NCBI GenBank assembly: GCA_021432635.1
Contig: MU270034.1
Location: 777,966 to 841,965 of the forward strand
DNA length: 64,000 nucleotides
Direction of reading: 5' to 3'
Origin: Thozetella sp. PMI_491
Taxonomy: Eukaryota > Ascomycota > Sordariomycetes > Chaetosphaeriales > Chaetosphaeriaceae
The first letter of the stretch is position 1, and every line of letters begins with the position of its first letter. Shown here in pieces: positions 29,594 through 64,000 of the stretch. Under the pieces are notes generated by a model that saw only the letters and a program-made list of their open reading frames with translations, did not search any database and had not been told where the DNA came from. The position numbers and the translations under genes are program-made.

Positions 29594-31140
29594 GACTCAA
29601 TACAGAAGATGCGGCCTCAACGGCGCCTAAACAGTTATAGCGATGAAATATCGATGCCGCGAGAAGTGTAGCGAGTTTTTAAGATTCGTGTTGAAGTAGT
29701 TGCAGCGTGAGGCGGGTGGACGAAGAGCGGGGTAGGAAGCTGATGGGCAGGTGACAAGGCTCCCTCCTGCAGCCTTGAGGTTGCCTTGGCGAAGAAGGCA
29801 TAAACTGCACTTATAAATCGTATTCCTGTCACTGGTGCCTATCGCTCATGTCTGCCCAACTCAGGCGGCCTCAATTCTGACGAGAATGCCTTTTAAGTTT
29901 GACATCCAACATCCTTTCCACTGGCAAGATGCTTTACCTTCGATTGTTTTGGGAGTTAGTTTTTGCATTGCGCCGAACGCGGGAGGCTGGAGGTAACCGC
30001 GATCGCCTCCTCGGGACTGCTTCTTAGGCTAGCTCGCTCCATCGCCTCCCTTCGACTTCCGGGCTGCCATCCACGAGGCGGTCGCTCGTCTGAAACACTG
30101 TTGGGCCGCGGGCATGAGCACCGCGCCGACGGCGGCCCGAGACCAAAACCAAGACGAACACTGGCGGCACCTTCCGCATCTAATTGTCCAGTTATGCGCT
30201 AACAAGACCCGCGTCCTGGTCGCCTCCTGCTTCCCTTTCCGATCCAACCCAGGCGGGCCACACTAACTTCCACTCCATATCCTAGCAAATCCACACAGGC
30301 CGCAAAGAAGATCCATGTGAAAGTCTTACGACATGACTAGCAAGGGTTGCATTGTTGTTATATTTCTAGATTAATCCTCTCAAGACAATAACCTCTCCAC
30401 GAACCAAACCGTCACCATTGCCCATACTCTTATCGCTCGCACTATGCTATTCGCCCTTCCACGCTGAACTCTGTCCTCATGCTGTAAGTTTACATGGTAA
30501 AATATGCCCTTGCGGCACTGTTTCTCTTTTTATGTGGTTATTGTAGTGTCGGAGCGCTAGGTAACGGGGTATGTACCGTATGTTTCTAGTTCCTATATGA
30601 TAGCTTGTTCTTGTTTATTACATGTCATTTTGTTTGCTTAAACGATCGAAAGTTAACTAAAAGGAGGCGAGGGGGGCTGATGAAAGTGGAGGGAGTGTAA
30701 TGCTTGTGGTAGGCATCTACTCGGTGATCACAATCTTGTGCTGAAAAAGTGGGCCGATCTCAGGTACATCAGTTAGTAGTGCGAGTTATATGGCAATCGA
30801 TGTATCGAGTCAGGCTCATGGCGGGGTAGTTCCGTGCACAATATCGTGATCAAGGAGGAGGTCATTGGCGACTGCAAAAGACCTGGTGCCCTTTCGGGAC
30901 GTCGGACCCACTTTTCGGAGTCCGGAAGGCCCAGAAAGGAAGGTCTTGGAGCTCAGCTAACGCGTTTGGCGTGACGACGTATGGCGACGTCTCTCCTGGC
31001 TGTGCAAAGTCGCAATTAGCTGCTTGCGACTAGCCATGGGCTGCACCGGCTATTGAGCAGCATCCAAAGACCTCTTCCTGCGCTTCCGCAGCGCCCTGGT
31101 CGCTGCCCCCCAAACACCTTTGCACCGCGCGCCAGCAGCC
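29594..31140. other. 1.5 kb intergenic, NLR and ABC transporter promoters
   Basis: Divergent starts: the NLR on the minus strand and the ABC transporter on the plus strand. No gene is recognised. One AflR-type site lies near the transporter. Confidence 0.6.
30915..30925 (+). promoter_or_regulatory. AflR-type site upstream of ABC transporter
   Basis: TCGGAGTCCGG fits the published AflR consensus TCGSWNNSCGR at every position. It lies about 215 bp before the transporter ATG at 31141. Binding is inferred. Confidence 0.5.
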
Positions 31141-34100
31141 ATGTCTCTGTGTGGAGCATCGAGCGATGGCTCCTTCGGCCCGCGCGTCGACGTTGGGTGC
31201 CGCGCCTTCGACTTCACCGTGTTCTTCGAGGATGTGTTTTTCGGCGCTGGCCCAGCCGCGCTGCTCCTCCTCTTTCTGCCCTTCTTCGGGTGGATCCTGC
31301 TGAAGCAGCGTCGCGTCGCTGGGGGCTCTCTGCTCCTGGCTGCTAAACTGGTGGGTCTCACTAGGGGACCCTGACGGAATGGCCTTGCTAAACTGTGCGC
31401 TAGCTGGCTTATTCGAGCCTATTTGCTTTCCATATCGCGTTTCTCATCCTCCGCACCCGAAACCTGCCAGTTACCACCGCCGCATCCCTTCCGGCTGATG
31501 TGTTGCAGGTTGTTGCCATTGCCGGGGCAGCGGAGCTCTCGTATCTGCACCACGGTCGCTCGGTCCGGCCGTCTACGCTGCTCACGTTGGCATTGTCGTC
31601 ATGGGCCTTGCTGGACGTCCCCCGTTTGAGGACTTTGTGGATGGTCCCGGGCGCCGAACATGCGTCCATTGTACTCACTATCGCCTTGACTTTGACCCTG
31701 ATCACCCTTGGCCTGGAGTCCAAGGACAAGCGGGACATCTTGGAAGCTGGAGTGGCCAAACCAGACACCCCGGAGCCCTTCGCTGGGTTCTGGAAGCGTG
31801 CTAGTTTTGCGTGGCTGGCGACAACTTTCCGCCGGGGATATACCAAGGTTATCTCGGTGGATGATTTACCGGAGCTGGATCCCCAGCTGAGCAGCGGCGT
31901 AGTTCACCACGAGCTGGAAAGGGCGTGGGCTACATGTATAGAAACCCCGAAATTCGGTGAGAATCTTCGCTCATCTTTGCTGACAAGTTCAACAGGCGAC
32001 AAGACCAGGAAGCATGCGCTACTGCTCGCCTGCTTCCGCGCCTATTCGGGCCCTTTCCTGGCCGGCGTGATCCCGCGCCTGTTTTTCACGGGCTTTTCCT
32101 TTGCGCAGCCATTCCTAATCAACGTCACAATATCTTTTATGGGCGACCCAGCCGCGGATACTAACTTTGGAAAAGGTCTCATTGGCGCTTTCGCGCTCGT
32201 GTATCTTGGCATGGCCGTAAGTCGATCTCCCCTGCTATTAACTCGGGGTTTTCGTCCTGACTGTCGCCTGGCAGGTTTCTACTGCCTTGCATTGGTACCA
32301 GACCTTCCGCTTCGTTATTCGCCTACGAGGCGGTCTCATCTCGCTCATATACCGCCACACGGTGCAGACGCGGGCTGTTGATTTGGGCGAGATTACCGCT
32401 GTCACCTTGATGGGGACCGATGTGGAGCGCATCACTACAGGTTTCAAGTCAATCCACGAGCTCTGGTCATCGGTCATCGACATCGCGATCGCCACCTATT
32501 TGCTCGAGCGCCAGGTCCAGATCGTATGCTTCGTTCCTATCTTGATGGTTGTCGGTGAGTACGGGCCCACGGCGGCGTACCAACTCCACTGCCCACTCGG
32601 GCAGCGTATTTCTATCTGCTAATCTCTCTGCGGCGTCCCTGCTTCCCAGTCGCGGTCATCATTATACTCAAGGTATCGATGCTCTCCAAAGGTTCACAGC
32701 GGGCATGGGTCGAAAAAGTCGAGGATCGTCTACGCCTGACCACACACCTGCTTGGAGACATGAAGGCAGTTAAGATGCTGGGCCTGTCCGAGCGGATGTA
32801 CGACCTGGTCCAGGGACTGCGAAAAGTAGAAATAGAAACCTCGCGAGCCTTTCGAAAGCTGCTCATATGGCAGATCTACGTCTGTAAGTGACTCTCTTCA
32901 CTTCTCGCCATGGGCAACACGCCAGGCCTTCTTCCTAAAGTATGCTGACCTGCTGTAGCGAACACTCCGGCTGACCTGGCACCCGTGCTCACATTCACGG
33001 TCTATTCTGTAATCGCACTAGTCCGCAATGACAGCTCTCTCCTTGCGGGCCAGGCGTTCACGTCCCTGTCGCTCATCTCGCTGCTTACTTCTCTCGTACT
33101 GGCTTTCATCCAGGCGATTCCGGCGGTGCTTCAGTGCATCGGCAGCTTTGACCGCATACAAGAGTATTGCAGCGAGCAGTCCTCGTGCACTACTATGGTT
33201 CTAGAACCTCCAAGCAGCGAGAAGAATAGCAGCGAAAAGAATAGCAGCGAAAAGAATAGCAGCGAGAAGAACAACAGCGAGAAGGACATCAGCTCCATCG
33301 GTTTGGTACCCCGGCCTTTGGATTCCATACAGCGCACCAACGGCGACGAGACAAGCATTATCACTGTCCGCGGATCTTCCTTTGGCTGGGGTAAAGACGA
33401 TAAGGCTGTTTTGGAGGATATTGATGTAGCCATTCCTAGAAATGCCTTCACACTCGTCCTCGGTCCGGTGGGGAGCGGGAAGTCGACCTTTCTAGAGACC
33501 ATGCTCGGCGAGACCGTGTCTGCGGACCGACAAGCTCAGGTGGCCCTCCCAACAACGGCATATTGCTCGCAGACGGTATGGCTCAGGGGTGGCACGATAC
33601 GCCAAAATATTATTGGTCCGTCCGAGGTCGATGAGACGTGGTACAAGACTGTCGTCTGGGCCTGTGGGCTAGAGCCAGATTTTCTTCAGCTTCCCCGCGG
33701 CGACCAGACGCCCGTGGGAAGCAAAGGACTCGGCCTCAGTGGCGGCCAAAAACAGAGAATCGTAAGTGTCTGCCTACGCCAAGAAAACTACTGGCACCCA
33801 TGGGATTTCTAATGACTTCTAAAAGGCACTCGCGCGCGCGGTTTACGCCAGAACTGCCATCGTACTGCTAGACGACGTCTTCAGTGGTGTGGATGCTGCG
33901 ACGACGGATCTTATTGTTCGCCGGCTGTTCGGCAGTGAAGGTATCTTTCGTAGGAACAAGAACACTGTCGTCTTGGCCACGCATAATGGTGAGTCGGATC
34001 GCTAGGCCACAACAGCCGCTGGTGATACTAACGACGTAATCAGCTACCCTGGTCCCCTTTGCCGACAGCTTAGTGGTGTTCCAGAATGGTCGTATCATCG

Positions 34101-36419
34101 AGCGCGGAAGCTACGATGAGCTCAGAAACGGCGACGGGTACGTGGCCAGGCTCGCCGTCAAGTCGTCAGATGTAGCCGAAGGGGCTGCCAACACCAGCGC
34201 GGCGGGCCCCGATGTTCCGGTAACACCTGGCGCGGACAGTGTCACCGATACTGAGCTGGCGCTCGATCTCTCGGACCCGACAAGACAGAATGGTAACTGG
34301 TCTGTCTACAAGTATTATGCGAAATCAGCCGGCTATACCGCGGTTTTTTCCTTTGCAGCGGCCATGGTCGTCGGGGCATTTTGCCACGAGTTTCCTAGTG
34401 AGTCTATACTCGTGAAATATGGAAGGAGAGGGTTAACGGTAGATCTTAGCAATCTGGCTAGACTGGTGGTCGGCCGCGAACGCAAAGAATCCGAATGCTG
34501 ACTTAGGTCTATACCTTGGAATTTACGCCCTACTCTCCGTGGCAACTCTCACCTCATTGCTGGTGGCCTGCTGGTACTGTTCTCTCCGTTTTTCCAGATC
34601 ATTCTTGGTGCACTCCAAAAATGGCTTACACCAAAATAGGTTCATTTTTATAACTATGATATCAAATTCCGCCATCAAGCTCCACAGCGACCTCCTCCGT
34701 GCTACCACAAGGTCAGTTTCCAAAGCCTAATTTCTCAAGCCCTCATCGCTTCCCAAAATGCAGTATAACTCGCTCTTAACACCTTAACTCTACCATAGAG
34801 CGCCAGTTCAGTTCTTCCAAAAGTCTGATGTCGGAAGCATCACCAATCGGTAAGAAATCCCCTAGTCTGTATTTGTTTGTAGGCTCCGATCTGCGATTAT
34901 CGCCTCCAGCATACAAAGAATTATAGGGAAGACTGATTGGATTTTGGATGTGAAGATTTAGTCAAGATATGGACCTCATCGACATGAATCTTCCTCTACA
35001 GGTCGTCAATTACGTAGTTGGTAAGTCTTGCCAAAGCTCGAAACAGCCACACGTGCTAAGCTGACGGTCGTAGCGGCTAGTACTTGCTTGGTAAAGGCAA
35101 TCATACTCTTCGTGTTTGTCAAGTATCTCGGTGTTGTCCTGCCTTTCATGGTAGCAGCTATCTACACCACGCAGAAATTCTACCTGCGGACGTCTCGCCA
35201 AGTCCGATTGCTCGACATAGAAGCCAAGGCGCCGCTATATACGCATTTCCTGGAGACAGTCCAAGGAGCGGCGATAATCCGGGCCCATGGTTGGCAGGAG
35301 ACCGTCGAAGCCGAGTGTCAGTCCCTGCTTGACACCTCCCAACGTCCCGTATACATTCTGTCGTGCATTCAGCAGTGCCTAGCCCTGGTTCTTGACTTGC
35401 TTGTCACGGTGTTGGCCGTCATCTTGGTATCCGTCGTCACTACATGGCGGGACGCCTTTGACCCCGGGGCCGTGGGCGTGGCCTTAATCATGGTCATGAC
35501 TTTTAATACGACATTGATGTCGCTCGTCAAATTCTGGACCACTATGGAGACTTCGATCGGTGCTGTGGCGCGCGTCAAGAAATTTGTCGATACGACCGAC
35601 TCCGAAGAGCCTGCACAGATCCCGGAGCCGATCCCGCGCGAGTGGCCCGAATCTGGAGCCGTCCAGTTCTCGAGCGTTGTCGCTGCGTACTCGAGCGGAT
35701 CCGATCCCGTGCTGAAGGGCATGACTACGTCTGTACGCCCTGGCGAGAAGCTGGCAGTCTGTGGGCGATCGGGGAGTGGAAAGACATCTTTCATTCTCGC
35801 TCTATTGCAGATGGTGGAGGTGCAGCAGGGCACCATAACCATCGATGGCATCAATCTCTCGCGTCTGAGTCCGGCCGACTTACGATCCCGCCTTAATGTC
35901 GTGACTCAGGACCCATTTTTGATGCCAGGGACCATTCGTTTCAACCTGGACCCGTTCGAGAAGGTCCCGGACGAGGATATAATCGCTGCACTGCGAAAGA
36001 TTGGCCTCTGGGATGCGATCGAGAAAGACGAGGGTCTGGACAAGGACATGACGGCTGAGTCATGGTCTGTCGGCCAGAGACAGCTCTTGTGCCTAGCTCG
36101 TGCCATGCTACGCAAGAGCCGTATCCTAGTGCTTGATGAAGCGACTAGCAGGTATGTTGAGTCTGTTAACCCCTTTTGAAGACTAAGTGCTAAAAGCTAT
36201 AGCGTTGATGCGGAGACGGAAAGAATGATGCAGGGAATTATCGACTCTGAGTTCCCGGACGTTACGATTATCGCTGTTACGCATCGGTTCGACTTTATCC
36301 ATCAGTATGACCGTGTTATTGTTCTTGATGGTGGCGTCTTGATGGAGGATGACACTCCTGCTGCCCTTCTGGCTTCCGAGTCGCATTTTAGAAAGATATA
36401 TCAAGCAGGAGGACACTAG
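31141..36419 (+). CDS. ABCC-type (MRP-like) ABC transporter
   Basis: A full-length fungal ABCC exporter with extra N-terminal helices (TMD0), then TMD1-NBD1-TMD2-NBD2, in roughly fifteen exons. It starts at ATG 31141 (MSLCGASSDGSF), and the first exon ends at about 31350. NBD1 has Walker A LGPVGSGKST, signature GLSGGQKQR and Walker B IVLLDDVFSGVD, where the usual catalytic Glu is Asp as is normal in this family. NBD2 has Walker A GRSGSGKTS, signature WSVGQRQL and Walker B ILVLDEATSS with the Glu. TMD2 is cut by several short introns between 34390 and 35075. An unusual SEKNS repeat sits in the linker before NBD1. It lies next to the FAS pair and has an AflR-type site in its promoter, so export of the cluster product is a reasonable role. 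ABC transporters also accompany fungal lipopeptide clusters. Confidence 0.88.
33216..33290 (+). repeat. 15-bp coding minisatellite (SEKNS repeats)
   Basis: Five imperfect in-frame 15-bp units (AGCAGCGAGAAGAAT and variants) encode repeated SSEKN/NSEKD in the linker between TMD1 and NBD1 of the ABC transporter. The unit length is a multiple of three, so copy-number changes keep the frame. Confidence 0.85.
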
Positions 36420-36774: not shown

Positions 36775-39700
36775 CTATGTGGTCTGTTCTAGAAACTTTT
36801 TCAACGGCAGGCTACCCGTCATGTGCGCCACCTCCTCCACATAAGTCCTGTCCAGAAAGAAAGGCTTACCCGTGAGATTAGGTATGTACCTACCAACGAG
36901 ACGGTCCGGGTCCACATCCTCTACGCGAATCTCTTTCATGAGGGTGATCCTATACGGGTCGATGCCGCCACGTAGATAGCTGGAGTGGAAAGGAACATTT
37001 ACTCCGCTCAAAGGCACCGTGGCTTTCCCTCGTTTCAGTACTAGCGGCTTTGGTGCCCGACTGAGGGCTGCTCTTGACGCTGCGATCAGTCCGCCTAGAG
37101 AAGCATTAGAGACTAATGGCCCTCGGGTCCCGGAGGAGGCTAGCTGGTCGCAAACGTGCGCGAGTATCCAGAGAGGTTCGAGCTAGGTGAAGTTAGACGG
37201 ACTGTTCTGCAATAACGCGGAGGAAGAAATATCCTTTGCCTACGAGCGCCAAGGAAAACAACTTACGTGACCCGCACAGACATATTGTTGCCCTTCCACA
37301 TTGAGGTTGACTACCTCTAGGAGAAGTCCTGTGTCGGAGTTGATAGCCGCAACAGTTTCCTGAAGCTGCCTCTCTCCGAATTCTATATGATGACCATGTA
37401 AGCTATTGGACTGGTGCACTGGCGGCCTTTATTCCCTCCTGTCGGGGGAGGTTCTCGGGGAAGGGGCGTACCTGGGTGCACTCTGCTGGGGTTTACGGCA
37501 ACCATGGAGTAATCCGTTCTACCATCCTGGTCTTGCTCAACTGCAGTTTGCATTACCATACCCCGGTAGAAAGACAGTCGCATCAGCGTTTCGACCGTAA
37601 GGATACTGGCGCACCCTGCCAGCGCACTGTACTCGCCAAGGGAGTGGCCTGCAAAGAGCGCTTTGTCCAGAATGAGGCCGCGGGATCGAAGTGCGGCCAT
37701 CTCGGCCAAGTTCAACAGGCTGATGGCTGGCTGCGCCATTTGGGTGGCAAACAGCAGCCCGTCAGGGTTTTGGAAGGTATACGACGAAGAGGACTCGGTC
37801 AAGCCATCAAACACCGACACCGCAACTTCCTCGCCGTTCTGTACAACCGATTTCGTGAGGGCGAGGTAGTTCGTCCGAAGCTGGCGCCCTCGATGGCCGC
37901 CAAAATACACTGTAAGAGCCTTGGGATTCCTCCGGACGATGTCCAGGAGCGAGAATCCTGAATAATTAACATGAGTCACCATAATTACATCTGGTATATT
38001 TGGTCCATGACCATCCATAGAGGGTAGCAGAATGGATTGGTACTCACCGTAAAGCTCAAACAGCGTGCGGTCGCCACGGTCCCACACGTCTCGGGCTGCC
38101 GGGTCAGACTCGTAGGTTGCCATGCCCATGCCTTGCCTTTGGCTTCCTTGCCCGCAGAATAAATACGCTGTCCCAGTCTGCTCGATTTCTGCTTCTGCTC
38201 GAATAATCTTGGCACCAGATTGGACGTCGTGGGCTTGAACTTCGAGAACCATGCGGCCACTCGTCATTGACGTATGCCGTATCTCGATCCTCAGCTGCTC
38301 GCCGCCGCGCAACATTCCTTCAAAGGATGTGCGCCATTGGCGGAACTGGGCTCCTCCGCACATGGCTGCAACATGATCCTGTACGGCAAGGCGACAGACA
38401 GCAGACGTGTACATGCCGTGCAGGATGGGCTGCTGCAACCCGGCGAATGCTGCAAAACTAGGGCATGTGTGGATCGGATTTGTGTCTCGGGATGCTACTG
38501 AATATTCCCAGGACCGATTGGGAATGGTGATGATCGGGCATTCTGATGAAAACCAGCCCGGCTGCTCAAGCGTGACGCGCGGTTCGGCAACGGAGCCGTG
38601 GCGGCGGAGGAAGTCAACGACAGGATTTCCAAAGCACGTCTCCGCAGAGAAGGCAACAGTAGCGATAAGTGCAGATCTTGAGTATACCTGCCCAGTAACC
38701 TTCAAACTCGATGGACTCTTAGCACCTTTGTCGGCTGCACCCGTAACCTCACGCGTAGCGATGCGAAATAGCAGTGTGCGTCCCAGAAGGCTGACAGACG
38801 CATCTGCCACATTAAACCACTTCCGACTTAAGAGGAGAGCCTCCATCTTAGCTGAGTTGACACGTATATGCGTATCGGGTGCCGTGATGTTCGAAACTGA
38901 CTTCTCGGGAGGGAAATTGCCGGGGATAAAAAAGGTCGATTCGATAGTAAAGGCTACTTCGCCATCTTTAAGCACCGTTCCCCTTACCTCGACGGTCTTC
39001 CCTCTGCGCTGGTTCTTAATGCTGATAACACGGGATGTGGCTTTGAATAAGTCGCCTATAGCAATGTTATAGCCGGCAGGGCCAACCTCGATAGTGTTCG
39101 CACGGTGAAGCAAGCGTTGCAGGTTTCCTCCTATTTGTGGATTGCACAGGGGCTTCACTAGGGCGTCCCATCCAAGCACCATGGCGATGTCTAGCGGGAT
39201 CTGACTGAACGTTTCGTGCGACTCTAGCTCCGGAGCTATGGCTGCCACGAACTCTTGAGCCAATCGTGGCGTCAACTCCAGTCCTGTGCCGGTGTAGTCG
39301 ATATCCAGCAGTGATGAGCTCGGAGAGATGCCTCGTGGAATATCTCCCACACCCCAGCAGGCTGCGTAGAAGAAACGGATCCTGGCATCGCGGTCCCTGG
39401 TTACATCTACTAGAGTCTGGACGCCACCCTCCTCTGCTCCGAAGATCTCGAGGTCTAGCCTTAGAGAGCTCATTGTTTGGCACAGGCCCCGCGAACCATT
39501 CAGTGTAACATCGATGTGTTTTCCATTTGTCGAAGCTAATGAGATTGCTGGATACGATGTATTCGATTTTAGGTCGAATCTTTGAAGTGTCAGGGTCACG
39601 GAACCGTCAGTCGGATTCTCAGTAATGTCGACAGTGTCCCGGGGACCAGGTGCACAAGCGCGAGGGATGGGATTAGGAACACGCCTGCGGCCTAGCACCA

Positions 39701-43596: not shown

Positions 43597-43607
43597 TCGG
43601 AGAGCGG
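43597..43607 (+). promoter_or_regulatory. AflR-type site 1 in FAS promoter
   Basis: TCGGAGAGCGG matches TCGSWNNSCGR at every position. Binding is inferred. Confidence 0.5.
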
Positions 43608-51119: not shown

Positions 51120-52458
51120 TTGCGCTTCTTTGAACGTTCTTTCTGTCGCATAGTTTCAGCGTTTTATTCCGACGCGAATGGGAAGACAGCAACTAGAGCT
51201 GGTGGAGGGGATAAAGCAAGCAATCCCGAGACACAAGAGGCACCAAGTATACCTCCAGCTTCCTCAAGCCTGTCGAGATCAGATACCGGGAAGAAGCGCC
51301 AGTAATAAAACGATAGGAACTCTGATGGTGAAGATGGCAAAGAGGGAAGCGATAGACGGCAGCTAAAGAGGCCTAGAGCAGACCAGGCTAGCGGCCCCAA
51401 AAGGCTCAAACATCCTGCCTGTCCTTTTGGAAGTTAAATCCAAGGAATCATAATATATGCCTATTCAAGAGGCTAACATCTATTAGCTCCGTAAAGCAAC
51501 ACTTAGTCAGGCGACACACCCCAGCCTTTTATTGTGCCGCCTGCTTCAAGCAGTTCGATGGCTTCGCTTCTTACGACGATCACGCGCTGGGGAGGTCATG
51601 TCGGCGGAGCCCGACTGCTGAGCTGGAAGGTATCTCATACGAAAAGACCAGAGAACTACGCCGCAAATCTAAACCTGGTACTCTCCAGGAGCAGTGGCTC
51701 GCCATATGGAGGGTCTTGTTCCCGGACCGATCTGGCCCCTCGTCCGTCTACGTGGATTCGGACCTGTCTGAGGACTTCTGTCTCGTACGCGAGTTCAGCG
51801 AGCGCTGCGGTGTATCTATTCTGCGGGAACAGCTCCGCAGCGATGGGCTGGCCCCGAGACTTGGAGTCTCAGAGGGCGAGCTCCTAGAAACACTGAGTAA
51901 GGCAATGGACGCCAATATTTGAACGCTTCGACCCCGAATGGTCTGCCGCTTTTCCGGTATCGCTTACCGATTTAAACGAGACAAGCTCCGAGGCCCTGGC
52001 ACCAGAGCCGGCTGTCGTGGCGACTAGCGCGGATAGCGAGGCGGTGATGGGGCCACAACCTTCCCAGGATGCTTCCCGGGCGATTGATGTGGCGTCATCC
52101 TCTTGGAACCGCATATATGGTCCGATAGCGCAGCAAACTCCGTTCCGGTAGGGTGTGCAGCAAACGGATGCAGAATCAGCAGCCGTTTCTAGCTCTCTTG
52201 ATGTTTCCCCGTAAAACATCGTACTAACAAGAGCAGAGGTAGTAGAGCCTTCCCCCAGTGTTCTCGCACAATACCCTTGGGATATTAGTTACACAAAATA
52301 CCTATCTCGAGCAGGAAACGGTTAATTGCCAACCTGAAGACCTCGCAAATATCTCTAGCGCCTTAGAACCCGAGTCATGGGATGTTGTGGGAGATGCCTG
52401 TGACTTTGATGTTTTGTTGGCAAATGTTCTTGGGGGCCCAGAGTCTCTGCCGAATTAG
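51120..52458 (+). pseudogene. degraded C2H2 zinc-finger family gene
   Basis: Remains of a common fungal gene family with C2H2-like fingers and a conserved C-terminal helix region. Readable pieces in order are: a charged stretch (RSDTGKKRQ) ended by two adjacent stops at about 51303; KRPRADQASGPKRLKHPACPF; SISSVKQHLVRRH followed by CAACFKQFDGFASYDDH; ISYEKTRELRRKSKPGTLQ; then VLFPDRSGPSSVYVDSDL; and a last open piece ending at 52458. The frame shifts by one at about 51428, so the finger is split, and more stops appear after 52140. Several stops look like CAA/CAG-to-TAA/TAG changes, as repeat-induced point mutation or decay would give. It sits inside the cluster but is unlikely to function. Confidence 0.65.
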
Positions 52459-54602: not shown

Positions 54603-54613
54603 TCGCTCACCGA
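54603..54613 (+). promoter_or_regulatory. AflR-type site upstream of AflS-like gene
   Basis: TCGCTCACCGA matches TCGSWNNSCGR fully and lies about 280 bp before the ATG at 54326. Binding is inferred. Confidence 0.5.
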
Positions 54614-55153: not shown

Positions 55154-56491
55154 CTAGACGTAGCTATCGACACGCCGCAGAAAGGTTACGGCTTCATTGG
55201 TGGCCCCTTGCAGGCGGCGTCGCAGGTCGAGCTCCAGATGCTGAAAGACCGACGCTGAGAGAATCCGGCCACCGCTGCCCGTTCCCGGTATAGGCAGAAA
55301 GCCGGCGTCCGGACCCGCCAGTTCGGCGCTGGCCCGTCGAGCCAGTAGTTCGGTCAGCGGATAAAAGCCATGCAGCTGGCCAAGCACGGCCTGTGTGCAT
55401 GCCCTGGCTTCCTCGTAGCTGTGCTCTCCGCTGGCAGCAACCGTCGCCCCACTTTTGATGATGCTGTGGTATCGTTCTAGGACCTCAAAAGCTGCCATCA
55501 CTACCACCAGCACCAAGCTGTCATCGGTAGCCGCGCATGTGCAGCTTAGCATTTTGATCGCCTGGCGCAGTACGTTAATGCCGGTCGTAACCACTTCTTC
55601 TGCCGATGACCGACTTGTGCTGCCGGTCCCGCTAGAAGCGCTTGACTTCGCACTCGGCGGGTTACCTACTCTTACAGGCATATGCGAGTCGGACGGCAGA
55701 ACGACGAAATAATCGTCCATATCGCCGCTTGAGGCTTCTGATTCCTTCAAGGTCACCAGAATCTCTGTTGCTTGCCGCAAGCAGCTGTGCTGGGGCGAGG
55801 ATTGCGCTGAACAAGATGACCACTGCCTCAGGTCGCCTAGTGCGCCGGTAGGAGCGCCCACCGGGTCTTCGAACCAGCGCAAAAGATTAGGAATGGATAG
55901 ACTGGTAGCGCTCGCATTCTCTTGTTGCTGTAATGAGCCAGCCAGAACCCCCGCGAAGCCAGCGTTGAGGTCCGCAGGGCGAGGAGGTCCGGTGTCACCG
56001 TCGGGCAGGATGCCGTCAAATGAATCTGGATCATGCGACAAGCTGATGGTTTCTTGGGGGCCGAGGCGCGGGGCAGAGGGCGCAAGGGCGGTGTCATGGC
56101 TCTGAGGTGCCAAGCTGAAGTCTAGGCATAGATCTGAGTCTAGAGAGTCGCCAAGTGCTGGGCGCGCACGGCCAGATGGCAAGGGCAGCGGGCGCTCGCG
56201 GGGCGTGGGCGTGGGCGTGGGCGACGTCGTGTCTGGCCTTGCGCTGCCAGCCGCCTCGGAATGCTGTGAGAAGTCCAGGACGCCGGCGCCGCGCCATGGG
56301 CTATGGGTGATGGGCCTCCTGCCTCCGGCCGGCAGGCGGCCAAAACGGTGGGATAGAGCGTAGTTGCACTGGAGGCCACGCTCATCGCAGCGAGTGCAAC
56401 GTGGGCGCGTCTTGCTGCACCGGACCTTGGCCGCAGAGCAACCTGTGCAAGTGTCGCGAAACCTTTGCCCGCCCGGCGGCCGGTCGGGCAT
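55154..56491 (-). CDS. AflR-like Zn2Cys6 transcription factor
   Basis: A single-exon, 445-residue regulator, close to the usual AflR length. The binuclear zinc cluster is at residues 15-42 with spacing C-x2-C-x6-C-x6-C-x2-C-x6-C, preceded by an RFRDTC arm and followed by the AflR-type linker SHRFGRLP. A Ser/Thr/Pro-rich middle (SPTPTPTP) and an acidic region precede a C-terminal half with EILVTLKESE, INVLRQAIKMLSC and FEVLERYHSII, consistent with the AflR family domain. In aflatoxin and sterigmatocystin clusters AflR binds TCGN5CGA-type sites. Such sites occur before several genes here, though I found none in its own promoter. It most likely activates the FAS-NRPS cluster. Confidence 0.85.
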   Translation of the reverse strand: MPDRPPGGQRFRDTCTGCSAAKVRCSKTRPRCTRCDERGLQCNYALSHRFGRLPAGGRRPITHSPWRGAGVLDFSQHSEAAGSARPDTTSPTPTPTPRERPLPLPSGRARPALGDSLDSDLCLDFSLAPQSHDTALAPSAPRLGPQETISLSHDPDSFDGILPDGDTGPPRPADLNAGFAGVLAGSLQQQENASATSLSIPNLLRWFEDPVGAPTGALGDLRQWSSCSAQSSPQHSCLRQATEILVTLKESEASSGDMDDYFVVLPSDSHMPVRVGNPPSAKSSASSGTGSTSRSSAEEVVTTGINVLRQAIKMLSCTCAATDDSLVLVVVMAAFEVLERYHSIIKSGATVAASGEHSYEEARACTQAVLGQLHGFYPLTELLARRASAELAGPDAGFLPIPGTGSGGRILSASVFQHLELDLRRRLQGATNEAVTFLRRVDSYV

Positions 56492-58844
56492 GACGCGCTG
56501 TTGTTGTGTCCGTCGGGGTCGGACTTCCCCTCCCGACGTGATTCGGCAGATCGGCTACCCTGGATTCAGCACCACTGCAAGCCCATGCGCTCGGGGCCAA
56601 GCAGTGTTATGTACACAGCATGCTCCGTATAGGTACCCCCCTTCCGCGGCCCCCAACTGCACATGGCTGGAAGGAGCTGGGAATGCAGGGCGGGTTTAGC
56701 GAGCGAGGTACCGAACTCGCGCCGCCGCCCCCCCTGGATACGCTACCAAGCATTCGCTGCCACGATTTAGGGTCCCGAGCACGGAATACGAAACCACTGC
56801 AGTATGTTGTCTAGGCTGCTAGGTTAGGCCTACAGACAGTAAATCCCGTACGCTAAGCAGGGGCTGAGCAGGGGTTACATACGTATATGTAGTCAACGTG
56901 AGTCAGGATCCCACCAAACGAATTTACTCACCGCCTTTGCACGGTTCTAACACTAACCCTGGATTAGATGCGTCTGCGCCTTGAAAAGTAGTTTGTTGGC
57001 TGATTAAAGGCGGTGATTAAGTTCATGGTGCTCTGGACCTCTCATAGTAGTACTTTTAGACCCAACAGGTCCCAGGATATGCTGTTCTGTCTAGAGTTAT
57101 ACACCTTTTAGCTACCTTATATATCTTTATATTGGTCTAGCTGGGGATAGCTAACCCGGGGTTAAATATCCTCCCATTTTACTAAACGAGCACTTGCGGA
57201 AACTCCCTAGCGGTTATGTACCACCATTATGCTAGCACCTTTGTAGGGCGAACGAGCTGGACCCACAACCTAGAATGAATTGGCGTATTAGGCTTAGCGC
57301 TTTGCAGGATCCGCCGGCCGCCTACGGCCCGATAGCCTGGGGAACTGCCCAGCCGAAGAGAGGTCACCAACCTCTGGGTATACAATCCTCCAGGATCACG
57401 AATCGGCACAGCAGACCAACTACTCCACATAGAAGGCGTATCTGGGCTGGATTGCATCGCATGGACCAGCCCCTCGGATTGCTTCTGCATGGTTCTCCTA
57501 AAGAATTCTAGAACCCTAGAGCTGAGCCGCTGACAAGCTCACGCGCCAAATGGTAGGAATAGGCAAAGATGCTGTGTTATGAGCCTGCCGCTGACGCCCA
57601 TTAACTGTGGGTAATATACTGCCTAATGAAGAAGAATGTTCCATACAAAACCACTGTCTCGTGTTGGCTAGTGTACGTGCTCCTAAATCCGATCGCCAGT
57701 TGGGAAAGAAGCCAGACCCACCCTTCACATGGTGTGTGGACTGCAAATCACCTTAGGCACGATTTGTGTTGTGTTCCTGTGCAGCCAATCAAAGCTTGGC
57801 TTGGCATGGCTAGATACCTCGAGTGACTTGCTAAGCAAGCATCGCTGATCAAATTGCTGGTGTCAGCCAATAAGATCAGTAGGTAAAATCAGCTGTCCAC
57901 TAGGAGCTCCATTGAAAGCATATACACTATTTTAACAAGGATTTTTTAAGAAGAAATCGTTAAAAAATCACAATAAAAGATGGATCGCTTAAACTAGTAA
58001 ATATAAAAGGTAATTATTAGATAGGTATAAAGATTGCTTTTAATCCTATTATAAAGGTTAGGATAGCTGTAAAACTAAGCGACTTTAAAAGTAGTGGTTT
58101 GATGACCCGCTAAATAAGTGATGTACTCAGTTGTACTAGTGGGTCGACCCGTTTTCACAACACAAGATCGGGCCTATGACTGGGGATGCGCTGTTGACCA
58201 ATGTAAACTATTGCGACATCGTCGCGCGCACTCGCGTCAGGATTTCCTAATCCACACCTCTGTAGACGCAAGGTTCGTCCGTCCCCCTGACAGGGAAGGT
58301 AGTATAGGTAGCTACAGTGCGTGCAGTGAAAGCCTCCAGCGGTTTGAATAGGGCGGACCCCCGGCTCATCTGCAATACCTGCCTATCTGGTGAGCGAATT
58401 AAACGGTTTACGGCACGGGCGCGGCCGCGAGGCGGCGCGCTAGCGGGAGGCGAAACCGAACCGTGGGTCCGGCGGGCTCAGAAGAGGTAGGGTACTTTTT
58501 GGACCCCAGACAAATATCGTACCTATATGTATGGACGGACGGGGTTCCGTACTTAATTGCCAGGGTTCGTCCTGGAAGGTCCAGGCTTTGAAGCATTCCG
58601 CACTTCTAAAAAAAAAAAAAAAAAAAACTTAGTCCGATGCAGAGGTCTGGACCCCGGAGTTCTATGCAGGTTTGGCACTAAATAATAGGAAGTCAAAGCT
58701 CCGCACGCATCGCCAACAAGTTTCTCCATTGTGCAATATTGTCAAATTATTGGCTCCCTGACACGTCTACCCTGAAAGCAGCCACCTGACAGTACTGGTA
58801 CCTGATAGCTCGTTCGACACGGGTCGGCCGCCGAATTGCCAAGC
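56492..58844. other. 2.35 kb intergenic with AT-rich patch and poly-A run
   Basis: Lies between the divergent starts of the AflR-like gene and the MFS transporter. No gene is recognised. The part from about 57900 to 58110 is strongly AT-rich, like a decayed repeat, and an uninterrupted run of about 19 A follows at 58608. Both promoters must lie here. Confidence 0.6.
58824..58834 (+). promoter_or_regulatory. TCGN5CGA core before MFS gene
   Basis: TCGGCCGCCGA matches the palindromic TCGN5CGA core but not the refined consensus. It ends about 10 bp before the MFS start codon, close for an activator site, so the call is weak. Confidence 0.3.
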
Positions 58845-60715
58845 ATGTCTTCTCTCGCAGACGAAGCGGACACCCCTCTGCTGTGCGACGAAGATTCCGT
58901 TGACCCATTGAGCCATGGGCATGCTCACTCGCGCTCTGGTGCCGACTCGACAGGTATTGCCTCGTGGCCTATCTTTCTCCTCGCCACCCTTGTCATCTTC
59001 CTCGCCCAGGCCGGCCTCGCGGTGGCAATTCCTTCTATAGCCGAGCTGCTCGAAGACATAATATGCGCCCACTATTACGCTGAGCCGCTCGCTGAGCCAC
59101 GCAATCGAATGGACTGCAAGGCCGAACCAGTCCAGACGCGGCTGGCAATGCTTAGAGGAGTCGCTTCCGTACTCCTCCTCCTACCCTGTAATCTGACCCC
59201 TGCCCGGCCTTGCCCTGCCCCCCCTTTCTCCCTGTTTTTCGTACAACGCTCGCACCATTCTCTGCCGGCCACGCTGTCCTTCCCGCCCCCAAGGGCTGAC
59301 CCAATGCCAAAATTCAGGTGTTGTCCTCACAGTTCCCTACACTGGCCTCGCGCAGCGCTGGGGCGTGCGTCCGGTTCTGGCTCTTTCCGCTTCGGGCATA
59401 TTCCTGGAGCAAGCATGGGTTGCTCTTGTTTGTGGGTATTCGCCGAAGCCTGCAAGGCAAATTGGGCGCGCACGAACCACTTACACCGACGGACATAGGC
59501 TGGTACGGCAGGACCTCGTGGCCGGTGGAGCTGGTCTATCTATCCCCCGTCTTCTATCTGATTGGCGGCGGCCTTGGGACCGCATCGTCGCTCGTCTTCA
59601 TCCTCGTTGCCGACATTACCCCTCCACACCTTAGGTACGTCCTTTCGAAGCACGTTGCCGACGTCATCGGCCGCACCGCGCTAACGCTGCAATTGTGTAG
59701 AGCGTCTCGCTTCTATCTCCTGGAGGCGTCTTCGTTCGGCGGAAGCATCGCCGGATACACCGTGAGCCCCTTGGCTTCGCAATGGAGCCCATGGGTGCCT
59801 GTGCAGCTTGGCCTCGTGCTTCTTGCGACGGCCAATGCCCTGATCATGCTGGATCTGGTATCGTGGCCACAGCAGAGTGATCAAGAGGTCCCAGCAGCAC
59901 CGGAGTCTGTGGGTAGTCCACTAGCTAAGTCTTCCACCTCATTTCACTTCGTGGGCTTGGCATATGCGTTTTTCTGGCGCCGCAAACTCGTCAGTATCGT
60001 ACTGATAGGATATTTCCTGAGGGCTCTCGCAATGAGTGTGATGAAGTTGCAGATTCTTTACGTATCGCATCTCCTCCACTGGGAATTCTCGCAGGTACGT
60101 GCACTGTGATACCGCCTAAACTACCAAAGTTAATACCCATTCGAATGTGCACAGGCAGCGTACATATTGTCGCTGGATAGTGGAGTGCACCTGGTCGTGC
60201 TCCTACTACTACTTCCGATCATCAGCCGTATGCTCCAGGGAAGGCTCAAGCTGCCCAACACAGTCAGCGATGCTTGGATCGCAAGAGGGAGCAGTCTGCT
60301 GTCGCTCGTCGGTTGCCTGGGGACCGCAGTCTCATCATCGCCTCCTACTATTGCCATCAGTAAGACTATATAGAACAACGGCTTCTCCTACCGATGACGG
60401 AAGAGAGATGCTGATTATTTTACAGGCACCGTATTGTACTCCCTTGGCGCAGGGTACTACCAGTCCGTCCGCGCCATGTTGACTGCGGTGACAGAATCCC
60501 AGGATCGGGCGGTTCTGTACTCGGTCATGATGATAGTTGAGATCATAGCTACTCTCATCGGCGCTTTCTCATGGCCGATGGTTTACGGAGCTGGCCTGCA
60601 GGCGGGGGGCTTCTGGGTTGGGATGCCCTTCGTAGCGGCTGCTGCCATTCTCGCATTTGTTTACTCTACCTTGGCAATTGTGCCCTCCAAGGAAGTCGTT
60701 TCTGAGGACGAATAG
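58845..60715 (+). CDS. MFS transporter in the FAS-NRPS cluster
   Basis: A 493-residue major facilitator in six exons: 58845-59187, 59318-59431, 59499-59634, 59701-60094, 60155-60359 and 60426-60715. The ATG at 58845 (MSSLADEADTPLL) is used, as the longer frame starts at TTG. A hydrophilic head of about 40 residues precedes the first helix (WPIFLLATLVIFLAQAGLAV). The loop LAQRWGVRPVL is a form of MFS motif A. About twelve hydrophobic segments follow, with a charged central loop. It stands between the AflR-like regulator and the dioxygenase/NRPS pair, so efflux of the cluster product or an intermediate is the likely role. The substrate class cannot be read from the sequence. Confidence 0.83.
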
Positions 60716-60931: not shown

Positions 60932-62045
60932 CTAACCAGCGATTTCCTTGCGCAGCAGCACGTCGCCGCTCTCCATGCCGCCAGTCAGGAAGCGAGTGCC
61001 ATCAGGCAAGTCAAATGGCTTCCTGAAGATGTCAAACTTGAAGTCGTGCCAGTCCTTGGCCGACCAAGCCTTTCCGTCCTGGTCGCGGAACGTGGCGTTG
61101 TCGGCCATGCGGAGGAAGTAGGCAATGCTGTATCGGTCCTCGTGCTGCACATCGTAGAGCGGCGTGACCCGGTGCACGACCGAGGCGAAGCGGAAGCCGG
61201 ACACAAATCGCAGGCTGTCGCCGACGTTGACGACGGCGTGGCCCTCGCGCGGCTCCACGAAGGCCCAGCTCGCCGTGTCCGGGGAGAGGATCTGTAAGCC
61301 CCACTGCTTGCACAGCAGGAACGTGAGCGTGCCCACGTCCGTGTGCTTATTGTGGCCCTTTCCCTCGGTGATGCCGTCATGCTTGGGATAGCGGAGCATG
61401 CCGAGGGTGCTCAGCCCGGGCTTAGACGCATCGTCGTGCAACACCTCGAAGCGGTCTGGGCCGGTGAGGCCGCAGGCGTCCGACAGCTCCGAGAGGATCG
61501 TCAGCGTCGCTCCATGCGCGCTGCGTATGAAGTCGAAGAAAAGCGCCTCGTGCTGCTTGGCCGAGCTTGTGAGCTCGGCGGAGCCATTGAGCTGCTCCCG
61601 TCGGGAGACCTAGGAACGTGGTCAGCGCTTTGCCACGCGATCCCGTGTCTACATCCGTGGACACACACCTTGAGGGACTCGTACGAGTCGACCGAGGTCA
61701 AGTCGTCACCCGCTGAGGTGCCCGCCGGCTCGTACCTGGGAGACGGTTATGTCGTGTACCACTGCAAGCATCTGCGTGTGAGAGAGCATACCCTGTATTG
61801 TCGCTTGCGCGGTCATCCTGCATCTTGACCTCCTGCGGCTGGGCGAAGTACTCGGCCATGGCATCGAGCAACTGCTGCCACTTGTCAAGCAGAACCGAGT
61901 CGCTGCGCAGGTCCAAGTAGAAGAATCCATACTTTTCGCACGTCTGGAGCAGCCGCGCGCGCTCGGTCAGGTCGCCGCGGCGGAGAAGGCCCAGATCATG
62001 AGTGGGGAGGGACGACGACACAATGTCGCCGCTGATAGTCGCCAT
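60932..62045 (-). CDS. 2-oxoglutarate/Fe(II) dioxygenase, cluster gene
   Basis: A 332-residue IPNS-like oxygenase in three exons: 62045-61792, 61735-61669 and 61609-60932. The ATG at 62045 gives MATISGDIVSSS. The N-terminal DIOX_N part has CEKYGFFYLDLR and FAQPQEVKMQDD. Iron ligands are in HTDVGTLTFLL and VVHRVTPL, and the 2-oxoglutarate Arg/Ser pair is in RYSIAYFL. It converges on the MFS gene, with about 215 bp between the stops, and shares a promoter of about 780 bp with the NRPS. A role in oxidising a residue or the acyl chain of the NRPS product is inferred. It is only distantly like the dioxygenase at 22-23 kb. Confidence 0.87.
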
Positions 62046-62828
62046 TACGAACGAGTGGGAGCAAACTCTATACAAGGCTTTTAATGGATGTCAATGGGGG
62101 TTCATCGCACTCCCGAGAGACGGGCAACTATGCCTAGAAAAGTAGGACTTGGCGTGATGCCTGTGTGTCATGTAGCATGGACACGCAAGGCAAATCGACT
62201 TGGACTAGCTGAGTAAATAATTAATCTTCACCTTGCCGCTTTTGCTCTGGGTTGTGGTGGTACGATATTGCTATCGCGGAGATTCGAACATTACGCATCT
62301 GGTCTTGTTCCGCGGGCCAACGACCTTGCCGTCGCAAGCCGTTTGCTCTTCAAACGGCTAGATGTTGGGAAGGATTTAGCTATACATTCCTCATCTGGCC
62401 TGACGATCCGAGACCTCTCTAAAACGGCGTTTACCGAGACCGTGGGGCTCGCCAATGCCGATCCGCTATTGGCCGCCCGTGTAAAGCTCCTTCGCTGAGC
62501 GAAGCCCCAATTTCAGCTGGGCTGTCCCATGATCCTGGGTCTCCGCTCCCCATTTGGCTAGAGCAATAAGGTGCCCGTCCCCACGAGGCACGATCAGTGT
62601 AAGTGGGGGGGCCGAGAAACCCTGTATCCAACGGCCATGCCATATTGCCAGCCTGTGGTAAGCTAAGTAAGTACCTTGCTCTGGTAATGCATCCTCTATC
62701 CCATATCTCTAGTTTGTAGTCGACCTAATCACAATCTTCTCGAACATAGCTGCCAGCCCTCTCAAGTTTCCCGAGCTACCACATCATTCGAAAGACCGTG
62801 TACTTGTAGAGAGAAAATCGGCGCAGCC
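62046..62828. other. divergent dioxygenase/NRPS promoter
   Basis: About 780 bp between divergent starts. Apart from the AflR-type site listed separately nothing is recognised. Confidence 0.6.
62492..62502. promoter_or_regulatory. AflR-type site between dioxygenase and NRPS
   Basis: TCGCTGAGCGA matches both TCGN5CGA and the refined TCGSWNNSCGR. It is embedded in a longer inverted repeat CTTCGCTGAGCGAAG. It lies about 330 bp before the NRPS start and about 450 bp before the dioxygenase start. Confidence 0.55.
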
Positions 62829-64000
62829 ATGATTCCACCAAACGGCGATGACCGCGGGGCGATAGGGGGAGCCGTTGGGAGCCTGAAGATGCTAGGTTTC
62901 CAACAGGCGTCCAATGAAAGCTTTGGGTCCTTCCCGAAGACTAGCGGTATCGTCACAATCGACGAAGTATCCCCCCTCCAGAGCCCAGGACCTACCAGCT
63001 ATGTCGATAGCTCGGCTCCAGCAAACGAAGCTCAGCTCGAGCCTAGCAGGTTCCCACTGATGGACTTCACCCAAGAGAGCCTCCAAGCTCTAGTTAGTGA
63101 ATTCCTTGCCAGACACGATGGCCTTACCGAAGGCGACATCGAGGACATCTATCCTTGCTCCCCCGTGCAAGAAGCTGTTCTCGCGAGCCAGCACCAGGGC
63201 AGGAGCGACTATGTGATTCGCGGAACCCTCGAAGTCATGTCGCTGGGAGACGGCCCTGTCCAACTGGGTCGACTCGAAGACGCGTGGAAGAGCGTCGTGA
63301 GGCAGTCTCCTATCTTGCGTACTGTCTTCCTCGAAGATACGACTGGGAGGGGTCTATTCTGCCAAGTAGTCGTCAGAAGCATCGCTGCAAGTATCGACAA
63401 GGTCCAGTGCAGTTCGCTGAACTCTTTCCTCGACAGAGTTGGCTGGACCAAGGACAGCTTCTCTCCACACTGCCTCACGTTTTGGGAAGCGCCTGCAGGC
63501 AAGACCTACCTCAAGCTTGAGCTTAACCACGCCATATCCGACGGTGTGGCGACGCTGGTTATAGTGCATGAGCTCATGCGCTTGTACGATGACCCGTCTC
63601 TGCGACTCACCGGCCCGTCGTATCGAGATTTCATGACGCACCTCCGGGATGTCCCGTATGAGGAGCATCTAGACTATTGGAGAGACTTTCTCTCCGGCGC
63701 GGAACTGTCGAATTTCACGCGGCTGAGTGACCCCACTCCATCCGGGTCCGAGCCCAAGATAGGCCGCCGCGAGATGAAGCTAGACAGAAACCGGATCCGC
63801 GCGGTGGGGGGTGACAAGGGAGTAACGCTCACGATGTTCTTCCAGGCAGTCTGGGCTGTGATTCTTCGCAGCTACCTTCACAGCAACGATGTGCTCTTTG
63901 GCTTCGTCTCATCAGGGCGACGATGTGTCCCGCTCAAAGCCGTCGGTACGGCCCTGGGCCCGTACATCGCCCAGATGGTGGCCAGGGCCCAGATCCAGAA
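62829..64000 (+). CDS. nonribosomal peptide synthetase, N-terminal condensation domain (partial)
   Basis: Open to the window edge, 390 codons visible. The ATG at 62829 (MIPPNGDDRGAIGG) is the likely start, with a disordered head of about 70 residues, then SLQALVSEFLARHDGLTEGD leading to the C-domain opening IEDIYPCSPVQEAVL. The active-site block reads LNHAISDGVAT, where the usual first His of HHxxxDG is Asn while the second His and the Asp/Gly are kept. Further C-domain pieces are SYRDFMTHL, ILRSYLHSNDVLFGFVSSGR and ALGPYIAQMV. Nothing resembling an adenylation or carrier domain precedes it, so the enzyme starts with a condensation domain, as lipo-initiating NRPSs do. That fits the dedicated FAS pair nearby. 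Downstream domains lie outside the window. Confidence 0.87.
   Translation, partial: MIPPNGDDRGAIGGAVGSLKMLGFQQASNESFGSFPKTSGIVTIDEVSPLQSPGPTSYVDSSAPANEAQLEPSRFPLMDFTQESLQALVSEFLARHDGLTEGDIEDIYPCSPVQEAVLASQHQGRSDYVIRGTLEVMSLGDGPVQLGRLEDAWKSVVRQSPILRTVFLEDTTGRGLFCQVVVRSIAASIDKVQCSSLNSFLDRVGWTKDSFSPHCLTFWEAPAGKTYLKLELNHAISDGVATLVIVHELMRLYDDPSLRLTGPSYRDFMTHLRDVPYEEHLDYWRDFLSGAELSNFTRLSDPTPSGSEPKIGRREMKLDRNRIRAVGGDKGVTLTMFFQAVWAVILRSYLHSNDVLFGFVSSGRRCVPLKAVGTALGPYIAQMVARAQIQ

What the first reader, a model, noticed from the sequence alone, without database searches (positions are those of the whole stretch)
30915..64000. AflR/AflS-type regulators paired with a FAS-NRPS cluster and no visible PKS
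The sequence shows, side by side, an ABCC transporter, a dedicated FAS alpha/beta pair of the AflA/AflB kind, AflS-like and AflR-like regulators, an MFS transporter, an IPNS-like dioxygenase and a C-domain-first NRPS. In known systems AflR/AflS control norsolorinate-type polyketide pathways (aflatoxin, sterigmatocystin, dothistromin), where the FAS feeds a PKS. FAS pairs also feed NRPSs in fungal lipopeptide clusters such as aspercryptin, which have other regulators. The mixture suggests an undescribed acyl-peptide pathway under an AflR-type switch, or a cluster assembled from two ancestral ones.
Basis: partly seen in the sequence, partly recalled or inferred. Interest (0 to 1): 0.88.

Follow-up and report, generated by a model that had tools for sequence, protein, structure and literature searches.

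The report
Aflatoxin-type switch beside a lipopeptide cluster
In the fungus Thozetella sp. PMI_491 a gene cluster carries the kind of regulator pair and fatty-acid-synthase pair that usually accompany aflatoxin-type polyketide synthases, but next to a giant peptide synthetase and no polyketide synthase, so it is predicted to make a fatty-acid-capped peptide and likely shows that this control-and-supply cassette can be reused with a different kind of assembly line.

Summary
From 30.9 kb the window carries an ABC transporter, divergent FAS beta/alpha genes, AflS-like and AflR-like regulators, an MFS transporter, an IPNS-like 2OG-Fe(II) oxygenase and the start of an NRPS. Past the window the NRPS ends near 85.6 kb: five modules, three E domains by motif, a degenerate A4, a terminal C domain. 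Of 97 ketosynthase matches in the genome the only one on this 1.08-Mb contig is the FAS alpha's own. The genome (Thozetella sp. PMI_491) holds a second, canonical set on contig C52: FAS beta/alpha, AflS, AflR and a SAT-KS-MAT-PT-ACP-TE polyketide synthase. All four shared genes have their best in-genome relatives there; the two FAS betas fall in one clade of three (support 100/100). Six AflR sites (TCGSWNNSCGR) lie in the ABC, FAS, AflS and 2OG/NRPS promoters where 0.6-0.85 are expected (post hoc). Best reading: an AflR/AflS/FAS cassette, shared by descent with a norsolorinate-type PKS cluster, here predicted to supply and control an NRPS that would make an N-acyl peptide. That the FAS feeds the NRPS and that AflR controls it are inferred, not shown. 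New variant of a known kind.

The parts
31141..36416 (+). full-size ABC transporter gene, ABCC-type by layout (multi-exon; likely export)
   Evidence: ORFs and exons; ABC_tran and ABC_membrane; start codon approximate
36778..43103 (-). FAS beta (GQ53DRAFT_806166); AT and MPT serine motifs intact
   Evidence: Pfam; 3' exons by match to C52 FAS beta; public entry P0002; GHSQG and GHSLGE motifs. Start codon approximate (the public model starts further upstream)
44259..49709 (+). FAS alpha: ACP, KR, helical, KS; no C-terminal phosphopantetheinyl transferase found
   Evidence: Pfam; ACPS domain found only in the C3 FAS alpha and one free gene; KS Cys and His motifs; start codon approximate
43597..43950 (.). 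three TCGSWNNSCGR sites in the divergent FAS beta/alpha promoter (43597, 43665, 43940)
30915..30925 (+). TCGSWNNSCGR site upstream of the ABC transporter gene
52693..54326 (-). AflS-like gene (GQ53DRAFT_719356), OMT-like by sequence, no PF00891 hit, altered SAM-motif region
   Evidence: the public model starts a few codons later
54603..54613 (.). TCGSWNNSCGR site (fits on both strands) upstream of the AflS-like gene
55154..56494 (-). AflR-like Zn2Cys6 regulator (GQ53DRAFT_746205)
   Evidence: Pfam; full-length relation to the C52 AflR
58845..60712 (+). MFS transporter (no match to the MFS frame of the C52 cluster)
60932..62045 (-). 2OG-Fe(II)/IPNS-like oxygenase
62492..62502 (.). TCGCTGAGCGA, AflR-type site in the 2OG/NRPS divergent promoter; the same 11-mer lies upstream of the C52 PKS (C52:430257)
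62829..64000 (+). NRPS, first part (C1). The gene goes on outside the window to about 85595: C1-A1-T1-E1-C2-A2-T2-E2-C3-A3-T3-E3-C4-A4(degenerate)-T4-C5-A5-T5-CT
   Evidence: E and CT are called by motif and place, Pfam labels them Condensation
51392..52148 (+). possible C2H2-like gene between FAS alpha and AflS; uncertain
   Evidence: sequence; no Pfam match over cut-off

Best explanation
The cluster holds a dedicated fatty acid synthase pair, an AflR/AflS-type regulator pair and a five-module NRPS without any PKS, and it likely makes an N-acyl, D-amino-acid-rich peptide under AflR/AflS control. Shown by sequence: the FAS beta/alpha, AflS and AflR genes have their nearest in-genome relatives in a FAS-NR-PKS-AflR-AflS cluster on contig C52; AflR consensus sites are present in four of five promoter regions, more than expected; the NRPS has three E domains by motif, one degenerate A domain and a terminal C domain; no phosphopantetheinyl transferase domain was found on the FAS alpha. 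Inferred: AflR, helped by AflS, switches on the ABC, FAS, 2OG and NRPS genes; the FAS, made holo by a separate PPTase, makes a medium-chain acyl-CoA; C1 joins it to the first amino acid; modules 1-3 add D residues; module 4 is skipped or loaded in trans; the terminal C domain releases the chain, probably as a ring; the 2OG enzyme hydroxylates it and the ABC and MFS proteins export it.
For: Second cluster in the same genome: FAS beta, alpha, AflS, AflR and a SAT-KS-MAT-PT-ACP-TE PKS on C52. Order and strand FAS beta(-), FAS alpha(+), AflS(-), synthase(+) are shared; AflR stands elsewhere. FAS beta: window, C52 and Gnomoniopsis form a clade at SH-aLRT 100 in a tree of 50 of the 120 listed hits and at 100/100 in a careful tree of 19 of them. 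FAS alpha fragments: 51% to C52 against 37% (C3) and 32% (C28); FAS beta fragments 44% to C52 against 38% to C3. AflR: match along nearly the whole length to the C52 AflR (30% over 454 aa, E 8e-32), while the other two genomic PF08493 proteins match over 46 and 55 aa only. AflS: after its own exons C52 is the best match in the genome, 240 bits against 75 for the next; one intron position is shared. Sites: 6 in 6,118 bp against 0.85 expected from the genome count (p 2.5e-4) or 0.59 local (p 3.4e-5); the backward pattern gives 2. No KS match on C20 beyond the FAS alpha's and no class IV aminotransferase match on C20. NRPS anatomy.
Against: No expression, metabolite or binding data. The AflR/MFS interval has no perfect site, although 6 of 17 A. 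nidulans sterigmatocystin genes are said to lack one too (PMC7344883 passage). That paper's abstract reports a different, 18-bp motif for A. flavus AflR, and such sites are said to stand before many non-dothistromin genes as well (PMC3153176 passage). Start codons, and so the promoter intervals, were set by me after the motif list was seen (one search came), so the p-values are post hoc. Genome-wide the backward control pattern is the commoner one (12,500 against 10,024). A first C domain without a preceding T domain does not prove acyl initiation, and no stand-alone acyl-AMP ligase was seen in the frames scanned. The FAS beta is not in the hexB clade. The 11-mer shared with the C52 PKS promoter occurs 64 times in the genome. 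The window AflS has two introns that the C52 gene lacks, no PF00891 hit, and its structure model was poor (mean pLDDT 52.5).
Confidence: 0.62

Rival explanations
1. The FAS product is turned into a long-chain 2-amino acid and built into the peptide, as in HC-toxin or apicidin, and is not an N-acyl cap.
For: Fungal FAS-NRPS pathways in print include the HC-toxin and apicidin family, with long-chain amino acids (PMC3729494 passages), and aspercryptin, which requires octanoic acid (PMC6162547 passages). C1 without a T domain could be inactive for initiation.
Against: No class IV (TOXF-like) aminotransferase match on C20 (7 matches in the genome), and none of any class among the cluster frames scanned. 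Frames under 150 aa were mostly not scanned, and a distant gene is not excluded.
Confidence: 0.17
2. Two unrelated units lie side by side: the NRPS with its 2OG oxygenase is one cluster, and the FAS/AflR/AflS block is a stranded copy that acts with the C52 PKS or with nothing.
For: The C52 cluster has its own PKS and related regulators, and dothistromin genes lie in separate mini-clusters (PMC3153176 passage).
Against: An AflR consensus site lies in the 2OG/NRPS promoter; between AflR and the NRPS only the MFS and 2OG genes were recognised; C52 has a FAS pair of its own; AT, MPT and KS motifs of the window FAS are intact.
Confidence: 0.15
3. The AflS-like protein is a catalytic OMT-fold enzyme (methyltransferase, or a pericyclase as I recall for some of its PDB matches) acting on the product, not a co-activator.
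For: Its best PDB sequence matches are Methyltransf_2-type proteins including HpiI and ApiI (E down to 7e-15).
Against: The match covers mainly the N-terminal half; the SAM-motif region is altered and PF00891 is not detected; its best in-genome relative lies in the AflR/FAS/PKS cluster; published AflS is described as lacking a conserved domain, with low similarity to a methyltransferase (PMC8395729 passages).
Confidence: 0.15

Closest known systems
Aflatoxin/sterigmatocystin/dothistromin-type clusters (hexA/hexB FAS, aflR, aflJ/aflS, NR-PKS)
   Same: FAS alpha/beta pair, AflR-type and AflS-type regulators, AflR consensus sites. This covers much of the proposed ancestral basal set pksA, hexA, hexB, nor-1, aflR, aflJ (PMC3153176 passage) and the AflR plus accessory-FAS block found by synteny around aflatoxin-group PKSs (PMC5635595 passage).
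   Different: No NR-PKS match on the contig; an NRPS stands in its place; the FAS beta lies outside the hexB clade in the trees.
Contig C52 cluster of the same genome
   Same: FAS beta(-), FAS alpha(+), AflS(-), synthase(+) order; nearest in-genome relatives of all four shared genes; the same 11-mer AflR-type site before the synthase gene.
   Different: Synthase is a SAT-KS-MAT-PT-ACP-TE PKS; AflR stands after the PKS on the other strand; the MFS frames do not match; no match to the window ABC, 2OG or NRPS frames at E 1e-6 in the 100 kb compared.
Aspercryptin-type FAS-NRPS clusters
   Same: FAS pair nested with an NRPS (PMC6162547 passage).
   Different: The positive regulator named for it is AtnN, not an AflR/AflS pair (PMC8395729 passage).
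HC-toxin/apicidin clusters
   Same: FAS subunit gene(s) with a multimodular NRPS (PMC3729494 passages).
   Different: Regulator is TOXE/APS2; they carry a branched-chain-type aminotransferase that was not found here.
AflR/AflS-type pairs elsewhere (mdpE/mdpA, tpcE/tpcD, P. fijiensis PKS8-1)
   Same: Paired Zn2Cys6 regulator and AflS/AflJ homologue.
   Different: In the passages seen these pairs serve polyketide synthase clusters; mdp and tpc are NR-PKS.

Membership tests
AflR-type regulators | Zn2Cys6 domain plus PF08493 domain | tested here: met
   Both over cut-off
AflR-type regulators | kinship beyond the DNA-binding domain with the AflR of a FAS/NR-PKS cluster | tested here: met
   30% over 454 aa to the C52 AflR, E 8e-32; the other two paralogues match over 46 and 55 aa only
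AflR-type regulators | clade with named Aspergillus AflR proteins | not tested
   The homologue search returned only the window's own protein; no reference sequence was at hand
AflR-type regulators | cognate sites TCGSWNNSCGR in cluster promoters | tested here: met
   6 sites in 4 of 5 promoter regions, post hoc; binding itself not testable
AflS-type co-activators | OMT-like protein paired with AflR | tested here: met
   Adjacent gene; 42% to the C52 AflS-like protein; PDB sequence matches to Methyltransf_2-type proteins
AflS-type co-activators | co-activator function | not testable with these tools
   Needs genetics
AflA/AflB (HexA/HexB) hexanoate synthase | secondary FAS pair distinct from the housekeeping FAS | tested here: met
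   Three FAS beta and four FAS alpha in the genome; PPTase domain only on the C3 FAS alpha
AflA/AflB (HexA/HexB) hexanoate synthase | FAS beta in the same clade as hexB | tested here: not met
   Fulvia fulva hexB sits in another supported clade; Aspergillus AflB itself was not identified among the rows
AflA/AflB (HexA/HexB) hexanoate synthase | makes hexanoate | not testable with these tools
   Chain length cannot be read from sequence here
Norsolorinate-type polyketide cluster | non-reducing PKS in the cluster | tested here: not met
   No KS match on C20 except the FAS alpha's; no SAT match except the FAS beta's
HC-toxin/apicidin-type FAS-NRPS cluster | class IV (branched-chain) aminotransferase in the cluster | tested here: not met
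   None on C20
Fungal N-acyl lipopeptide NRPS | N-terminal C domain able to take an acyl donor | tested here: inconclusive
   C1 is first, has an NHxxxDG core, is 29-34% identical to the other C domains and alone lacks the intron that C2-C5 and CT share; donor not testable

The most novel reading that the evidence does not exclude
AflR, AflS and the hexA/hexB-type FAS form a portable acyl-supply-and-switch cassette that is older than, or separable from, the polyketide synthase. In one genome it now drives two different assembly lines, an NR-PKS on C52 and an NRPS here, so one AflR-type signal could turn on a polyketide and a lipopeptide together.
Probability: 0.4. Interest if true: 0.76.

Novelty: new variant of a known kind. 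Interest (0 to 1): 0.62.

Why it matters
AflR/AflS and the dedicated FAS are treated as part of the aflatoxin-type polyketide machinery. Two related copies in one genome, one beside a PKS and one beside an NRPS, give a natural test of how clusters are rebuilt: whether a regulator-plus-precursor block can be moved to a new synthase and keep its promoter code. It also points to an unknown acyl peptide and to possible cross-control of two pathways.

Tried and rejected
AflR homologue search: 1 hit among 7,997 candidates, the window's own protein, so no AflR family tree. AflS search: 3 hits among 7,995 candidates, two of them from this genome, so no AflS family tree. Structure prediction of AflS: mean pLDDT 52.5, not used; no fold search made. 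PDB comparison of A1 showed only that it is an A domain (214 matches, 60 listed). Amino-acid pockets: residues at the usual positions were read by motif anchors and recalled GrsA numbering (A2 and A3 alike, A5 close, A1 different); no amino acid is claimed. A tree of the 9 C/E domains put C1 next to the E domains on a long branch; not used as evidence for a starter domain. MFS synteny with C52: rejected, the frames do not match. NCBIfam gave no useful subtype.

Literature, all in an open-licence library, so 'not in print' is not claimed beyond it: (Thozetella; 33 papers, 25 listed) showed no paper on this cluster by title. Searches (3 papers; 18; 2; 105, 10 listed; 4), with AflR, AflS/AflJ or norsolorinate terms beside NRPS, FAS or lipopeptide terms, listed no FAS-NRPS cluster under an AflR/AflS pair by title or start of abstract. 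Searches (6; 3; 37, 8 listed) were for known FAS-NRPS and lipopeptide systems; (4) for the site. Eight papers were seen as passages only: PMC7344883, PMC8395729, PMC3729494, PMC5635595, PMC6162547, PMC9002641, PMC4979122, PMC3153176.
Full report
What is there. The window is contig C20, bases 777966-841965, of a 72.3-Mb, 157-contig fungal genome. The AflR-like protein matches GQ53DRAFT_746205 of Thozetella sp. PMI_491 on a contig of 1,084,023 bases, the length of C20. Pfam scans of the open frames give, left to right: ABC transporter, FAS beta on the minus strand, FAS alpha on the plus strand, an uncertain C2H2-like frame, AflS-like, AflR-like, MFS, 2OG-Fe(II) oxygenase, NRPS. Left of 30.9 kb lie among others a NACHT protein, an MFS transporter, a GDSL lipase, a sugar transporter and a GH31 enzyme. 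Right of the NRPS come frames that read like an MFS permease (by eye), two fungal transcription-factor frames, an acyltransferase, an S15 peptidase and an SDR. The 20 kb fetched left of the window were not scanned with Pfam. The cluster is taken as 30.9-85.6 kb; the borders are inferred.

The NRPS outside the window. Frames 62688-68903, 68719-73689, 73685-78475, 78499-81960, 81942-85115, 85179-85388 and 85404-85595 carry C1-A1-T1-E1-C2-A2-T2-E2-C3-A3-T3-E3-C4-A4-T4-C5-A5-T5-CT; Pfam calls all C, E and CT parts Condensation, and E and CT are told apart here by motif and place. The three E domains have the HHxxxDxxSW core. A4 has lost the usual A3 motif with its lysine, the E of YGPxE, the A8 motif and the A10 lysine, so it is predicted to be inactive. 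An intron lies at the same codon boundary in C2, C3, C4, C5 and the terminal C domain, after D-P-S/T-E (A-D-E in CT) and before the next Y/F, while C1 reads through that place without one (in one search the C2 donor was entered one base late). This fits duplication of the later C domains and a separate history of C1, or loss of the intron there. The gene model is by eye, not by transcripts.

No PKS. Of 97 ketoacyl-synthase matches in the genome, the only one on C20 is the FAS alpha's. Of 18 SAT matches, the only one on C20 is the FAS beta's. No class IV aminotransferase match lies on C20 (7 in the genome).

The second cluster. FAS beta matches are on C3, C20 and C52 (3); FAS alpha on C3, C52, C28 and C20 (4); PF08493 proteins at C20:570 kb, C52, the window and C100 (4). 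On C52 within 403-444 kb lie FAS beta(-), FAS alpha(+), a HET/NACHT-WD40 stretch, AflS(-), an MFS frame, a PKS with SAT, KS, MAT, PT, ACP (four stretches) and TE domains, and AflR(+). This is the set expected of a norsolorinate-type cluster; its product is not known. In a six-frame comparison at E 1e-6 of the window plus 78 kb of flanks with 100 kb of C52, all matches fell in FAS beta, FAS alpha, AflS and AflR, antisense shadows of the FAS genes included.

Kinship of the block. FAS beta tree of 50 of the 120 listed proteins (1,146 hits in all): window, C52 and Gnomoniopsis P0011 form a clade with SH-aLRT 100; the order inside is open; Fulvia fulva hexB is elsewhere. A careful tree of 19 of them gives the same clade at 100/100. 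FAS alpha fragments are 51% identical to C52, 37% to C3, 32% to C28; FAS beta fragments 44% to C52 and 38% to C3. The PPTase domain is found on the C3 FAS alpha and one free gene only (2 matches), so the secondary FAS alphas would need a PPTase in trans. AflR: 30% over 454 aa to the C52 protein; the other two share only 46 and 55 aa around the DNA-binding domain. As a yardstick, the AflR proteins of A. flavus and A. nidulans are given as about 33% identical (PMC7344883 passage). AflS: 42% to C52, with one shared intron position and two introns that only the window gene has; after its own exons the C52 gene is the best match in the genome, 240 bits, next 75 bits at C16.

Promoter code. The published site TCGSWNNSCGR (PMC7344883 passage) occurs 10,024 times on both strands in the genome, its backward control 12,500 times. 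In five promoter regions of the cluster (6,118 bp) there are 6 sites: one before the ABC gene, three between FAS beta and alpha, one before AflS, one between 2OG and NRPS, none between AflR and MFS. Expected 0.85 from the genome count or 0.59 from the rest of the 142 kb; Poisson p 2.5e-4 and 3.4e-5; the backward pattern gives 2. The p-values are post hoc, since the list of sites was seen before start codons were fixed. Against it: the same paper's abstract gives another, 18-bp motif for A. flavus AflR, and a review says such sites also stand before many non-dothistromin genes (PMC3153176 passage). The site before the NRPS, TCGCTGAGCGA, also stands before the C52 PKS; it occurs 64 times in the genome.

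How it likely works. Inferred chain: AflR with AflS switches on the four promoters; the FAS supplies a medium-chain acyl-CoA; C1 acylates the first residue; modules 1-3 add D residues; module 4 is skipped or loaded in trans; module 5 and the terminal C domain finish and release, probably as a ring; 2OG hydroxylates; ABC and MFS proteins export. The catalytic motifs checked in FAS and 2OG are present. None of the steps is shown by experiment.

Compared with what is known. [quoted passage not shown] AflR/AflS-type pairs named in the passages of PMC8395729 serve NR-PKS clusters, and the AflR-like/AflJ-like pair of P. fijiensis PKS8-1 a PKS cluster too (PMC9002641 passage). FAS-NRPS clusters exist (aspercryptin-like, HC-toxin) but with other regulators. 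The present mixture is therefore called a new variant; by the searches named in Tried and rejected I found no described case.

Noticed in passing
G000:C52:403724-443787 (L025-L029): FAS-NR-PKS-AflR-AflS cluster in the same genome; its AflS-like protein is named in the public record as a putative sterigmatocystin 8-O-methyltransferase precursor.
   Followed up: partly
NRPS, outside the window to 85595 (L011-L013): An intron at the same codon boundary in C2-C5 and the terminal C domain, absent from C1; a sign of module duplication.
   Followed up: yes
78499-81960 (outside the window, L012): A4 domain open in frame but with several core motifs lost; predicted inactive.
   Followed up: yes
G000:C28:459500 and C28:280-288 kb: A fourth FAS alpha-like gene with no FAS beta match on that contig, and an NRPS about 170 kb away.
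   Followed up: no
G000:C100:14-31 kb: NR-PKS with SAT domain and a PF08493 regulator about 15 kb apart, no FAS match on that contig.
   Followed up: no
window 26323-28341 and C52:417681-422581: NACHT genes (with HET and WD40 on C52) lie beside or inside both clusters.
   Followed up: no
window 51392-52148: C2H2-like frame between FAS alpha and AflS, no Pfam match over cut-off; might be a third regulator or a remnant.
   Followed up: partly
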